Below, one piece after another: positions 40,937 through 45,120 of a stretch of DNA of 64,000 nucleotides; position 1 is the stretch's first letter, and each line of letters opens with the position of its first letter. Both the position numbers and the translations under genes were made by a program. A model generated the notes under the pieces. It did no database searches, was not told where the DNA came from, and saw only the letters and a list, made by a program, of their open reading frames with translations. Origin of the DNA: Sulfurovum sp. NBC37-1 (GTDB lineage: Bacteria; Campylobacterota; Campylobacteria; Campylobacterales; Sulfurovaceae); NCBI RefSeq assembly GCF_000010345.1, contig NC_009663.1:806001-870000 (forward strand), given 5' to 3'.

Positions 40937-41488
40937 ATGTCAGAAAAACAAGCAAACAACGTAGATCAAATAAGGGATTTGATCTTTGGGTCCCAAATCA
41001 AAGAGTTCGATGAAAAATTCAGTCAGATGGATGCACGCATCAAAAAAATGCATGAAGAGATCAAAAATAACTTTGTAGAATCTCATGAAAAACTTAAAAA
41101 AGAGACTGATCGTGCTATGGAAATGCTGGAAAAAAAGATAGATAACCTCTCAACTCTTACACAGAAAGAGAGACAGAAGCTCAAAGAACTTATCGATACA
41201 ACAGATGAGGCACTTCAGGACAAAATGGCAATGCAAAAGGATGAATTTGACAGCAAGTTGAAACTAACCAAAGAGAACATTGGCGATGACCAGCAGAAGA
41301 TCAAAGAAATTATTGCTTCAACCAGAAAGGAACTCAATGATATTTTGCAAAATAGATTTGCGGCACTTTCTGATGATAAACTCTCACGGGACAGTATGGC
41401 CCAGATGCTTCTGGATGTAGCAATGAAAATTCAGGGCACTAATATGGAAACTATATTGACAGAAGGTAAAGAAGCTGAAAAAAAGTGA
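40937..41488 (+). CDS. coiled-coil protein, first gene of the GTPase module
   Basis: 183 residues from MSEKQANNVDQIRDL (AAGGA upstream), no signal peptide. Almost wholly charged coiled coil: KEFDEKFSQMDARIKKMHEE, repeated heptads to about residue 145, ending AMKIQGTNMETILTEGKEAEKK. The stop directly follows an A7 run (41478-41484). The next frame is coding from this point with no usual start codon until 41571, so the two may be one protein joined by a +1 shift or slippage. Likely a cytoplasmic scaffold for the downstream membrane protein and GTPase. Confidence 0.7.
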   Translation: MSEKQANNVDQIRDLIFGSQIKEFDEKFSQMDARIKKMHEEIKNNFVESHEKLKKETDRAMEMLEKKIDNLSTLTQKERQKLKELIDTTDEALQDKMAMQKDEFDSKLKLTKENIGDDQQKIKEIIASTRKELNDILQNRFAALSDDKLSRDSMAQMLLDVAMKIQGTNMETILTEGKEAEKK

Positions 41489-41570
41489 TTCAAACCTTGA
41501 CAAGCTCAAAGAACTTCTTTTAAGTGATGAACTTAAAAAACTGGAAGAACTAGAGTCAGAACTCAGGAAA

Positions 41571-43445
41571 TTGAGAATTGAATCAAACGACCAGAAGATC
41601 ATAGCAAAAAAAATCCTTCCACTGTTTGATAAGATGCTGCTTGAACGTCTTCAGAGTAAAGATCAGGTAACGATAGCGATACTTTCAGACCATCTTGCCG
41701 ATATTATTGCCAAATCTTCACAAAACAATACCGAAGCGCTGAGCCATTCTTTGCAAAATATCCTGGCAGTTGCTATCAAGCGGGAGATCGCTTCGAACAA
41801 AGATGCAATGATAGATTCCCTTTATCCCATTATGGGTGGAATGATCAGTAAATACGTTACGTCGGCTATCCGGGAATTGATGGAAAACATCAACAGAAAA
41901 GTAGACGAAGGTCTCTCTTTTGATCGTATCAAACGTAAAATCAAATCGAAAATGACTGGTGTCAGTGAAACGGAACTCCTACTTGAAGAGAGTGGAGATG
42001 TGCTGATATCTTCTCTTTTTGTGATCCATAAAAAGAGCGGACTCCTTATCAGTGAAGCCCATTTGACAGAAAAGGCGATCAGTGATCCGCATCTGGTCGC
42101 TTCCATGGCCAGTGCCATCAAAGATTTTATCAATGACTGGATACAAAGTGATCAAAGGCATGATGAAATACAACTGCTCAGTTACGGAAACGCTACACTG
42201 TATATTGAGAGTGCCGGCAGTGTTTATATGATCGCTTTCATGGATGCTGAGCCAGACAGGGAACAACGAATGGAGATTAACCGTTTTTTTGCCTCTCTGG
42301 TCAAAGAGTATATGGATATTTTTCAGGATTTTAATGGAGATGACAGCAGTGGTGAGATCCACTCCCTTTCCCAGAAATTACAGCACTATCTTGATAAACA
42401 GGAAAATATTTCAGACCGATCCGGAAAAAGGATTCAGTCAAAAACCGGACAATATCTTCTTGTTTTGCTTCTTCTTATTTTTCTGATACCGGCATTTTAC
42501 TGGAGTAAAGACCGATATGAGGAGTATCATATTAGATCTGAGATCATGCAGAAAACGGGATATCCGATACAGATTGAAATCAAAGATCAGACTCTCTTTG
42601 CAAAAGGAAGTGTCGATACTTTCCGTGCGCTTCATGATATTGATAAAATCATCCGGAAAAACAGCAAAGGCAAGATTGTCAATGATATTACCATTCCCAT
42701 GGTACAGGTTGAAAAACTATATGAGGAACAGAAAATCTATATAGAACGTAATGTAAGTGCACTTTCAGGGTATATTAAAATTTTGGATCATGAATTAAAA
42801 TCGGCTGACAAATCCATTGTCAAGCTTACAGAAAAGCTTAAGGAGCAGGTACTTCAGAATAAAAAGATAATAAATGAACTGACCGCAAAGAGTGATAGAC
42901 TTTTGAAAATGTCGAAAAAAGAAAAACAGATCAGCAGGTTGTTGAATCTCAAAAAGAACATTGACAAACATCTTGCGGCAGCTTTTGCAGATAGCATTTA
43001 CTACAATCCGAAGAAAAACGTACTTGTTTTTTCAGGTCCTCAATTTTTCCCAAAAGGAAGTGTTGCCCTTCAGGGTAATGCAAAAAAGATTTTGGAAGAG
43101 ACTTCGATAAAATATTTTTCTGTTCTTTTGAGTATTCCCGAAGCAAAAAAATATATTGATCGTATTTCTGTATCTGCCTATACCGATAGTGATGGAACTT
43201 TACAGTATAATACTCAACTTTCTTTCAAAAGAGCCCAGGTAGTCACTGAAAGTCTTGCTTCTCTGCAATACCTAAAAGGCAAAGGTCTGTTGAAATATTT
43301 GAAATTCAAGGGATATGCGGGCAGAGATGTGATCATGGTGAACGGGATAGAAGATAAAAATGCTTCCAGAAGAGTAGAGATAGGATATGGTCTGGATGAG
43401 AGACGGATCAGTGATGATTTGGTAAGACTTACAGAACAGAATTAG
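41571..43445 (+). CDS. membrane-anchored OmpA-domain protein with longin-like cytoplasmic domain
   Basis: At least 624 residues from a TTG; coding character extends upstream in frame to about 41489 (DKLKELLLSDELKKLEELE). Layout: helical region (1-135, with YPIMGGMISKYVTSAIRELM), a domain at about 143-258 starting VIHKKSGLLISEAHL and ending in FNGDD that resembles longin/roadblock regulators of small GTPases, one membrane helix (295-311), a BON-like domain (325-378), coiled coil (380-468) and an OmpA peptidoglycan-binding domain (470-612; NTQLSFKRAQVV and NASRRVEI). Probably spans the inner membrane and grips peptidoglycan. It is in an operon with a Ras-like GTPase. Confidence 0.75.
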   Translation: MRIESNDQKIIAKKILPLFDKMLLERLQSKDQVTIAILSDHLADIIAKSSQNNTEALSHSLQNILAVAIKREIASNKDAMIDSLYPIMGGMISKYVTSAIRELMENINRKVDEGLSFDRIKRKIKSKMTGVSETELLLEESGDVLISSLFVIHKKSGLLISEAHLTEKAISDPHLVASMASAIKDFINDWIQSDQRHDEIQLLSYGNATLYIESAGSVYMIAFMDAEPDREQRMEINRFFASLVKEYMDIFQDFNGDDSSGEIHSLSQKLQHYLDKQENISDRSGKRIQSKTGQYLLVLLLLIFLIPAFYWSKDRYEEYHIRSEIMQKTGYPIQIEIKDQTLFAKGSVDTFRALHDIDKIIRKNSKGKIVNDITIPMVQVEKLYEEQKIYIERNVSALSGYIKILDHELKSADKSIVKLTEKLKEQVLQNKKIINELTAKSDRLLKMSKKEKQISRLLNLKKNIDKHLAAAFADSIYYNPKKNVLVFSGPQFFPKGSVALQGNAKKILEETSIKYFSVLLSIPEAKKYIDRISVSAYTDSDGTLQYNTQLSFKRAQVVTESLASLQYLKGKGLLKYLKFKGYAGRDVIMVNGIEDKNASRRVEIGYGLDERRISDDLVRLTEQN

Positions 43446-43468
43446 ATTCAGAAAGATAAAAATAAGCA

Positions 43469-43945
43469 ATGATACGAAAGAAGATTCTTTTACTGGGTGA
43501 TTTCAATGTAGGAAAGACAAGTCTGATAAGGCGCTATATTGAAAACACATTCGAGGACAAATATCTTACTACCATTGGAGTAAAGATATCAAAAAAAACT
43601 TTATCTATTGATGAAAAAGAATATGAACTTATTATCTGGGACGTAGAAGGAAGAACCCCGCAAAAAAAAGTACCTGAAAGTTATTTGCTTGGTGCCAGCG
43701 GTGCGATCTTTGTGGCTGATTGTAACAGGGAAGAGACGGTGAAGGACCTGAAAGAGCATATTGAAAGGTTTTTGAGCCTCAACCCGGATGCAAAATATGT
43801 CAAGGCTTACAATAAGTCTGACCTGTTGACAGATCAGCAACAAGAGCTGTTTGTTCTTGACGGGAGCAGTTTTTTTACATCTGCAAAAGATGGTCTTAAT
43901 GTAAACTGCTTATTCAGTACACTCGCAAAGGAGATGCTTCTATGA
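43469..43945 (+). CDS. Ras/Rab-like small GTPase
   Basis: 158 residues, a complete prokaryotic Ras-superfamily G domain: G1 GDFNVGKT (10-17), G2 Thr in YLTTIG (32-37), G3 DVEG (58-61, normally DTAG), G4 NKSD (115-118) and G5 TSAK (137-140). There is no C-terminal lipidation cysteine and no membrane segment, so localisation must come from partners, presumably the longin-like domain upstream. Its stop overlaps the diguanylate cyclase start by 4 bp (ATGA). Confidence 0.9.
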   Translation: MIRKKILLLGDFNVGKTSLIRRYIENTFEDKYLTTIGVKISKKTLSIDEKEYELIIWDVEGRTPQKKVPESYLLGASGAIFVADCNREETVKDLKEHIERFLSLNPDAKYVKAYNKSDLLTDQQQELFVLDGSSFFTSAKDGLNVNCLFSTLAKEMLL

Positions 43946-45120
43946 AAAATATACAGATTATCCTCAATGCCATTTTGTCTCAGGATGTTTTTGAATACAT
44001 TTTAATAAACCGTAAATACCACATAACCGACTTTTCTGAAGGTGTGGAAAGCTACATAGGGAAAAATGTACAAAGAGGGGATGAAATATATGATTACCTA
44101 CCTGAGATCGTCGGATATGAAGACAGGGTAGCTTCAGTTTTTGAGGATGCAAATAACAGGTATATCCTTGAAACTGTCTATAAGAACGATCACTACATCA
44201 ATATCCATCTTGAGCACTATAGTCACGATATCGTATTGATTCTTTTGCATAATACAACAGAGATTACTCTGTCCAAGCTGGAATTGCTACAATATAGTAA
44301 TGAAAATATTCTGCTTTACAATACGATTAAAAAGATCCTTGACAGTCAGAATAATCTACTGGTAGTGACCAGCAACAACAGGATAGAATATGCAAACAAG
44401 CAGTTCCTTGAATACTTCAGCATCCGGGACCTGTACCATCTCAAGGAAAGGGAAGCGTACAATTTTGCGCTGACTTCTCTTCCTGTAGAGAGTTTTGAGG
44501 AACTCTATGAATACGCTAAAGAAAAAGAAAGAACATTGATGGTGGGGAAAGACACTTTCCTTGTCAAGGCAACGCCTCTGGAAAAAGCATACAAGCTGTT
44601 TACTTTTTCCAAAGTTACACAACTCAATGAAGTAAACCAGACGCTGAAAAACAAAATCGATCATGATCCCCTGACAGGCCTATACAGAAAATCATTCTTT
44701 GACATAAAGCTTCATGAGAAGTTAGACGAAAGGAAAGAAGCAGTGCTAGCCATTATTGACATAGATGATTTTAAAAAGATCAACGATAACTATGGGCATT
44801 TGGTTGGGGACATGGTACTTCTGGAGTTTACCGATCTCATTCGAAAGAATATGCGTGCCAATGATCTTTTTGCCAGATGGGGAGGTGAAGAGTTTTTGAT
44901 ACTTTTTGAGTGTACAGATACAGGGAAGATCGTAAAAAAAATAGAGCAGATACGACAGATCATAGAGAAGCACCCGTTCAAGACGATTGGACACTTGACT
45001 GCAAGTTTCGGTCTTTCGACCTCTTTAAAAAATGATACGCTGGAATCTTTGCTTGAAAGGGCGGACAGTGCACTCTATATTGCTAAAAAAACAGGAAAGA
45101 ACAAACTGGTTGTTAAATGA
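43942..45120 (+). CDS. PAS-GGDEF diguanylate cyclase
   Basis: 392 residues, soluble. Two PAS-like regions (about 12-110 with FEYILINRKYHITDF, and 125-225 with NNLLVVTSNNRIEYANKQFL), a short coiled linker, then GGDEF domain: DHDPLTGLYRK, IDIDDFKKINDNYGH and active site GGEEF (314-318). The inhibitory I-site RAND (305-308) sits five residues before it, so product feedback is expected. Makes c-di-GMP. Translationally coupled to the small GTPase. Confidence 0.92.
   Translation: MKNIQIILNAILSQDVFEYILINRKYHITDFSEGVESYIGKNVQRGDEIYDYLPEIVGYEDRVASVFEDANNRYILETVYKNDHYINIHLEHYSHDIVLILLHNTTEITLSKLELLQYSNENILLYNTIKKILDSQNNLLVVTSNNRIEYANKQFLEYFSIRDLYHLKEREAYNFALTSLPVESFEELYEYAKEKERTLMVGKDTFLVKATPLEKAYKLFTFSKVTQLNEVNQTLKNKIDHDPLTGLYRKSFFDIKLHEKLDERKEAVLAIIDIDDFKKINDNYGHLVGDMVLLEFTDLIRKNMRANDLFARWGGEEFLILFECTDTGKIVKKIEQIRQIIEKHPFKTIGHLTASFGLSTSLKNDTLESLLERADSALYIAKKTGKNKLVVK

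What the first reader, a model, noticed from the sequence alone, without database searches (positions are those of the whole stretch)
40937..45120. Envelope-anchored small-GTPase module coupled to c-di-GMP synthesis
Seen: four consecutive same-strand genes encoding a coiled-coil protein, a membrane protein with a cytoplasmic longin-like domain and periplasmic OmpA domain, a complete Ras/Rab-like GTPase (DVEG in place of DTAG, no lipidation Cys) and a PAS-GGEEF cyclase with I-site; GTPase and cyclase overlap by ATGA. Known: longin/roadblock folds regulate small GTPases (MglA-MglB is the bacterial example); OmpA domains bind peptidoglycan. Inference: the membrane protein recruits or regulates the GTPase at fixed envelope sites, and GTP state tunes local c-di-GMP. 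I know of no described pathway with this set.
Basis: partly seen in the sequence, partly recalled or inferred. Interest (0 to 1): 0.85.

Follow-up and report, generated by a model that had tools for sequence, protein, structure and literature searches.

The report
Rab-like GTPase with envelope longin partner
A four-gene bacterial operon carries a Rab-like molecular switch, a wall-anchored membrane protein whose cytoplasmic part is predicted to fold like the longin domains that control Rab proteins in our own cells, and a c-di-GMP-making enzyme; the gene set was described in 2014, but the longin fold appears not to have been recognised and the function is untested.

Summary
In detail: four same-strand genes at 40937-45120 encode a coiled-coil protein, a longin-TM-OmpA protein, a Rab-like GTPase (DVEG, no lipidation Cys) and a tandem-PAS GGEEF cyclase with an I-site, the last two overlapping by ATGA. 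One correction: the membrane protein most likely starts at a conserved CTG (41475), not TTG 41571. The claim 'no described pathway with this set' is wrong: Wuichet and Søgaard-Andersen (PMC4316618) described it as the Group 1 'Rup' GTPase neighbourhood (coiled coil, unknown domain-TM-OmpA, GTPase, c-di-GMP or histidine-kinase output). What I add is computed. Their unknown domain is predicted to be a longin domain (VIA Z 13.0 to VAMP7, 12.9 to TRAPP, 10.9 to MglB), beside a GTPase whose closest solved relatives are all Rabs. Of 59 loci with full flanks, 49 keep all four genes and 57 have a same-strand gene directly after the GTPase. Eight lack a longin gene just upstream; one locus has two GTPase-output pairs behind one longin gene. 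Best reading: an envelope-anchored longin platform sets the GTPase, which gates its own PAS-linked output enzyme. I found no biochemistry; interface and direction are inferred.

The parts
40937..41488 (+). coiled-coil protein, 183 aa; conserved N-terminal motif (QIRDLIFGSQ)
   Evidence: upstream of the longin gene in 50 of 59 loci
41463..41466 (+). SD-like AAGG, 8 nt before the proposed CTG start
   Evidence: SD-like match of 4 nt or more at 15 of 15 CTG loci against 10.8% of background positions
41475..43445 (+). longin-TM-OmpA protein, 656 aa from the proposed CTG start
   Evidence: frame open from 41460 with no ATG/GTG/TTG before 41571; CTG at the same position in 15 of 16 loci, ATG in the other
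41997..42416 (+). predicted longin domain (residues 172-311 of the 41484 frame), b-b-a-b-b-b-a-a
   Evidence: AF2 model, Foldseek and VIA matches
42444..42500 (+). single transmembrane helix
   Evidence: hydropathy peak 2.02 over 19 residues starting at residue 321
43044..43364 (+). OmpA domain, presumed peptidoglycan-binding
   Evidence: Pfam PF00691, 30.6 bits against a cut-off of 27.2
43469..43945 (+). Rab-like small GTPase, 158 aa
   Evidence: Pfam Ras 85.5 bits; profile closest to Rab1/Sec4/Rab23 among solved structures
43640..43651 (+). G3 motif DVEG, in place of DTAG; next residue Arg, not Gln
   Evidence: sequence; alignment A1
43942..45120 (+). PAS-PAS-GGDEF protein, 392 aa, overlapping the GTPase gene by ATGA
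44290..44292 (+). Q117, on the helix joining the two PAS domains; candidate for the 'invariant Gln' of PMC4316618
   Evidence: Gln in 45 of 61 output proteins
44854..44865 (+). I-site RxxD (RAND)
   Evidence: sequence
44881..44895 (+). GGEEF active-site motif
   Evidence: sequence

Best explanation
This is a Group 1 Rup signalling module that works like a bacterial Rab/longin switch. The coiled-coil and longin-TM-OmpA proteins form an inner-membrane platform that the OmpA domain ties to the cell wall; its cytoplasmic longin domain binds the Rab-like GTPase and controls its nucleotide state, as an exchange factor or scaffold in the manner of TRAPP and Mon1-Ccz1. The loaded GTPase then binds the PAS-PAS sensor part of the enzyme encoded with it and switches the output, here c-di-GMP synthesis. 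Shown by computation: the gene set, its conservation, the Rab-like GTPase, the predicted longin and PAS folds, and the GTPase-output pairing. Inferred: the physical contacts, the direction of control, the signal and the GEF role.
For: Gene set and order kept in 49 of 59 loci with full flanks, across several phyla. Longin-class fold predicted for residues 172-311: VIA Z 13.0 VAMP7, 12.9 TRAPP, 11.0 Mon1-Ccz1, 10.9 MglB. GTPase profile closest to Rabs. The GTPase-output pair persists without a longin gene just upstream in several loci, and L038 has two such pairs behind one coiled-coil-longin pair. ATGA overlap of GTPase and cyclase. Two PAS domains ahead of GGDEF. Outputs vary (GGDEF, GGDEF-EAL, histidine kinase, adenylate/guanylate cyclase) while the N-terminal region and the GTPase stay. 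The published Group 1 Rup model is similar.
Against: No contact between any two of the proteins was tested. The most conserved helix of the longin model (202-223) has pLDDT only 66-69, and no sequence-level link to PDB longins was found. A shared fold does not show a shared function. Seven loci run without a nearby longin gene. The Gln proposed to act in trans is not invariant.
Confidence: 0.45

Rival explanations
1. The longin domain is a GTPase-activating or sequestering partner (MglB-like) that keeps the GTPase off at the envelope; release from it permits output. Anatomy as above, opposite sign.
For: MglB, the GAP of MglA, is the top Foldseek match (E 1e-4) and scores VIA Z 10.9. The GTPase lacks the G3 Gln, so an external catalytic helper is plausible.
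Against: VIA matches to longins cover one more helix (to about residue 310) than those to MglB (to about 278). The GTPase keeps the G3 Asp that MglA lacks (PMC3000849 abstract).
Confidence: 0.2
2. The output protein is the GTPase's regulator: its N-terminal region, with the conserved Gln, acts as a GAP in trans, and the GTPase reports back to the envelope complex (the speculation of PMC4316618 on the Gln).
For: Group 1 Rup GTPases lack the G3 Gln, and a conserved Gln sits in the output N-terminal region. Window Q117 fits, and 45 of 61 outputs have Gln there.
Against: 16 of 61 outputs have K, N, R, G or T at that position, while aligned GTPases of such loci still lack Gln61.
Confidence: 0.15
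3. The coiled-coil and longin-OmpA proteins are a separate envelope complex that does not act on this GTPase; only GTPase and cyclase form a pathway, and the four genes merely share an operon.
For: Three Sulfurovum loci (L034, L035, L037) keep GTPase and cyclase between similar flanking genes but lack the first two genes there.
Against: The four genes stay together across several phyla, the membrane protein has a GTPase-binder-type fold, and the genome bins of L034, L035 and L037 each hold a second module on another contig (L061, L096, L065; L065 is cut by its contig end), so the longin protein could act in trans.
Confidence: 0.13

Closest known systems
Group 1 Rup GTPase neighbourhood (Wuichet and Søgaard-Andersen 2014, PMC4316618)
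   Same: Same four components: coiled-coil protein, domain-TM-OmpA protein, Rup GTPase without G3 Gln, c-di-GMP or kinase output protein with a conserved N-terminal region
   Different: The paper calls the domain unknown; here it is predicted to be longin. The Gln called invariant there is not invariant in this wider set, if Q117 is the same residue
Eukaryotic Rab with longin-type regulators (TRAPP, Mon1-Ccz1, Fuzzy-Inturned)
   Same: Rab-like GTPase beside a predicted longin domain
   Different: Bacterial, no lipidation Cys on the GTPase, longin domain fused to a TM helix and OmpA, enzyme output instead of membrane traffic; no exchange activity shown
MglA-MglB of Myxococcus and Thermus
   Same: Small GTPase with a partner of longin/roadblock-class fold
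   Different: MglA lacks the G3 Asp that this GTPase has; the match to MglB stops before the last helix; the partner here is membrane- and wall-anchored
Actinobacterial conservon (Cvn)
   Same: Small GTPase operon with a roadblock-class partner and a signalling enzyme
   Different: Conservon GTPases are of the MglA family; the partner is MglB-type and the GTPase, not the kinase, is the proposed output (PMC4316618)

Membership tests
Group 1 Rup system | Ras-superfamily GTPase of 240 aa or less with Asp in G3 but no G3 Gln | tested here: met
   158 aa, DVEGR
Group 1 Rup system | neighbouring coiled-coil protein | tested here: met
   40937-41488; homologues at most other loci
Group 1 Rup system | neighbouring protein with a conserved domain, TM helix and OmpA | tested here: met
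Group 1 Rup system | neighbouring c-di-GMP or histidine-kinase output protein | tested here: met
   GGDEF 129.7 bits
Group 1 Rup system | invariant Gln in the N-terminal region of the output protein | tested here: inconclusive
   Q117 fits, but the paper's figure could not be seen and the position is Gln in only 45 of 61 relatives
Group 1 Rup system | placement of the GTPase in the Group 1 clade of a tree | not tested
   no tree with the published sequences was built
Longin domain | b-b-a-b-b-b-a-a topology and structural match to solved longins | tested here: met
   AF2 model; VIA Z 13.0 over 119 residues at 2.8 A to VAMP7; a prediction, not a solved structure
Longin domain | sequence-level similarity to known longins | tested here: inconclusive
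   profile search of PDB sequences gave no hit at E up to 10
Longin domain | binding to a small GTPase | not testable with these tools
   no multimer prediction, no assay
MglA-MglB | GTPase lacking the otherwise conserved G3 Asp (Thr in MglA) | tested here: not met
   G3 Asp present: DVEG; MglA feature from the abstract of PMC3000849
MglA-MglB | MglB (Robl_LC7) partner in the neighbourhood | tested here: inconclusive
   no Pfam Robl_LC7 match in the longin protein, but its model resembles MglB; a separate Robl_LC7 protein lies elsewhere in the genome
Zorya defence (ZorAB) | ZorA MotA/ExbB-type membrane stator beside ZorB | tested here: not met
   only the OmpA part matches ZorB1 (PADLOC E 1.2e-23); the neighbouring coiled-coil protein gives only weak ZorA hits (E 0.0037 or worse)

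The most novel reading that the evidence does not exclude
A bacterial Rab-longin pair in which a wall-anchored transmembrane longin protein is the exchange factor for a Rab-like GTPase: a membrane-spanning receptor coupled to a Rab-type switch with interchangeable output enzymes, implying that the Rab-longin partnership exists outside eukaryotes and Asgard archaea.
Probability: 0.3. Interest if true: 0.8.

Novelty: new member of a known kind. Interest (0 to 1): 0.5.

Why it matters
Group 1 Rup GTPases group close to Rab/Ran/Ras/Rho in the tree of PMC4316618. If their usual operon partner is a longin protein, the Rab-longin partnership central to eukaryotic membrane traffic has a bacterial counterpart that can be tested with two purified proteins, and envelope state could be wired to c-di-GMP or kinase output through a GTPase. 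I found no experimental study of the module in the library searched.

Tried and rejected
(a) Testing a GTPase-PAS interface with in-frame read-through chains (L054, L072, L106, L107, L098, L100): the mixed alignments A7 and A8 were misaligned, so no job was sent; the tool also reports no PAE. (b) Longin-GTPase chains: the Flavobacterium pairs are out of frame; nine pairs at other loci are in frame but carry the TM and OmpA parts between the two domains, so were not tried. (c) Sequence-level longin homologue in PDB: none. (d) A Zorya system: rejected, no ZorA. (e) A +1 frameshift joining the coiled-coil and longin genes instead of a CTG start: disfavoured, because a CTG with an SD-like site, or an ATG in L047, stands at the same position. 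(f) Phage origin: no PHROG hit for the longin region or the GTPase. (g) Four literature searches for experimental work on Rup or on this combination gave nothing relevant beyond PMC4316618; most subscription papers are not in that library.

Full report
What is there. The window is G000:C1:806001-870000 of a complete 2,562,277-base genome. The size is that of Sulfurovum sp. NBC37-1 from memory, and the closest relatives found are Sulfurovum. Four genes run in one direction: a coiled-coil protein (40937-41488), a membrane protein ending at 43445, a small GTPase (43469-43945) and a GGDEF protein (43942-45120). Pfam gives OmpA, Ras and GGDEF above cut-off; a PAS match in the cyclase is just below it. 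The GTPase has the usual motifs, DVEG at G3 and no terminal Cys; the cyclase has GGEEF and an RxxD I-site. Genes three and four overlap by ATGA.

The gene set is not new. Wuichet and Søgaard-Andersen (PMC4316618) defined the Rup family and reported that Group 1 Rup genes lie with a coiled-coil gene, a gene for an unknown domain often followed by a TM helix and OmpA, and a gene for a c-di-GMP enzyme or histidine kinase whose N-terminal region has an invariant Gln; they proposed a membrane signalling system. The window fits the features I could test. I found no experimental follow-up.

The unknown domain. I aligned 48 homologues and folded residues 1-324 of the 41484 frame. Residues 172-311 form b-b-a-b-b-b-a-a, mostly with pLDDT above 80, weaker (66-69) in and around the helix 202-223. 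Foldseek's best PDB hits are MglB (E 1e-4), followed by MglB, TRAPP, AP-complex and Mon1-Ccz1 chains. VIA-align 2 puts longin domains first: VAMP7 Z 13.0, TRAPP 12.9, Fuzzy 12.8, Sec22b 11.9, Mon1-Ccz1 11.0, MglB 10.9; rows within 1 of each other are ties. Matches to longins run to about residue 310 through the last helix, those to MglB stop near 278, which favours longin over roadblock topology. No sequence-level link to PDB was found, so this rests on the model. The GTPase profile's 60 best solved relatives are all Rab/Sec4/Ypt proteins. A Rab-like GTPase therefore sits beside a predicted longin domain.

Conservation. A search of 200 genomes of the order with the longin part alone found 13 genomes besides the window's own; 12 have the GTPase and cyclase adjacent, and the exception (L031) lies near a contig end. 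A GTPase-pattern scan of GTDB genomes gave 76 loci, in Campylobacterota and in records named Flavobacterium, Oscillatoriales, Bdellovibrionales, Oleiphilus, Vibrio, Desulfobulbus, Desulfarculales, Treponema, Dehalococcoidales and others. Of 59 GTPase loci with full flanks, 49 hold all four genes, and 57 have a same-strand gene right after the GTPase. Eight have a downstream gene but no longin or coiled-coil gene detected just upstream; in one of them, the Treponema locus L099, the gene after the GTPase is itself the longin type, so seven are clean GTPase-output cases. In the Sulfurovum loci L034, L035 and L037 the GTPase and cyclase are followed by the same transporter gene, but the first two genes are absent; other contigs of the same bins carry a second module (L061, L096, L065). 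L038 has one coiled-coil-longin pair followed by two GTPase-output pairs. I read the GTPase and its output as the unit and the longin pair as shared input. One study reports that unidirectional pairs with overlaps or very short gaps often encode subunits of heteromeric complexes (title of PMC10666635).

The outputs. Among 61 proteins encoded after the GTPase, 47 match GGDEF, 8 histidine kinase, 4 EAL and 1 adenylate/guanylate cyclase; one matches FAD-oxidase families and is probably not an output. Many Sulfurimonas outputs lack the GG[DE]EF signature. The N-terminal part of the window cyclase folds as two PAS domains joined by a helix 106-135. The likely 'invariant Gln' is Q117 on that helix: Gln in 45 of 61 but K, N, R, G or T elsewhere, while aligned GTPases from such loci still lack Gln61. 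It is therefore not a universal trans-acting catalytic residue; the paper's figure could not be seen to confirm that it is the same residue.

Gene start. The longin gene has no ATG, GTG or TTG at its conserved N-terminus. Among 16 loci examined where its frame begins inside the coiled-coil gene in the +1 frame, 15 have CTG at one position (window 41475) and one (L047) has ATG there; DNA identity around the site between these loci is mostly 30-70%. All 15 CTG sites have an SD-like match of at least 4 nt, against 10.8% of background positions. A CTG start is the simplest reading; the protein is then 656 aa. The loci are related, so these are not 15 independent events.

Mechanism. Best supported: the wall-anchored longin platform binds and sets the GTPase, which gates the PAS-linked enzyme encoded with it. 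Shown by computation: genes, conservation, predicted folds and pairing pattern. Inferred: contacts, sign (GEF, GAP or scaffold), signal and timing. Rivals are listed with their tests.

Verdict. An uncharacterised member of a known kind, with a useful new prediction about the unknown partner.

Noticed in passing
window 41463-41477 and loci L036, L038-L041, L043, L044, L046, L049-L052, L061, L096: Conserved CTG start codon with an SD-like site for the longin-OmpA gene, inside the end of the coiled-coil gene. Automatic annotation is likely to misplace this start.
   Followed up: yes
G000:C1:1446472-1446738 (-), locus L110: The only Robl_LC7 (MglB-type) match in the genome, a 125-aa protein upstream of an ABC-type ATPase gene; no MglA-like partner was seen near it.
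   Followed up: partly
L058:4157-4546: A 129-aa protein that looks roadblock-like by eye lies about 4 kb upstream of a GTPase-output pair that lacks a longin gene.
   Followed up: no
window 42906-43427: The periplasmic OmpA part is closer to ZorB1 of Zorya (PADLOC E 1.2e-23) than to the general Pfam OmpA model.
   Followed up: partly
L070, L077, L079, L081-L086, L107 (Sulfurimonas-type loci): The output proteins lack a GG[DE]EF signature, so they may be degenerate cyclases or receptors.
   Followed up: no
G000 whole genome: 18 GGDEF and 13 EAL matches but no PilZ match, so other c-di-GMP receptors would be needed if the pathway is active.
   Followed up: no
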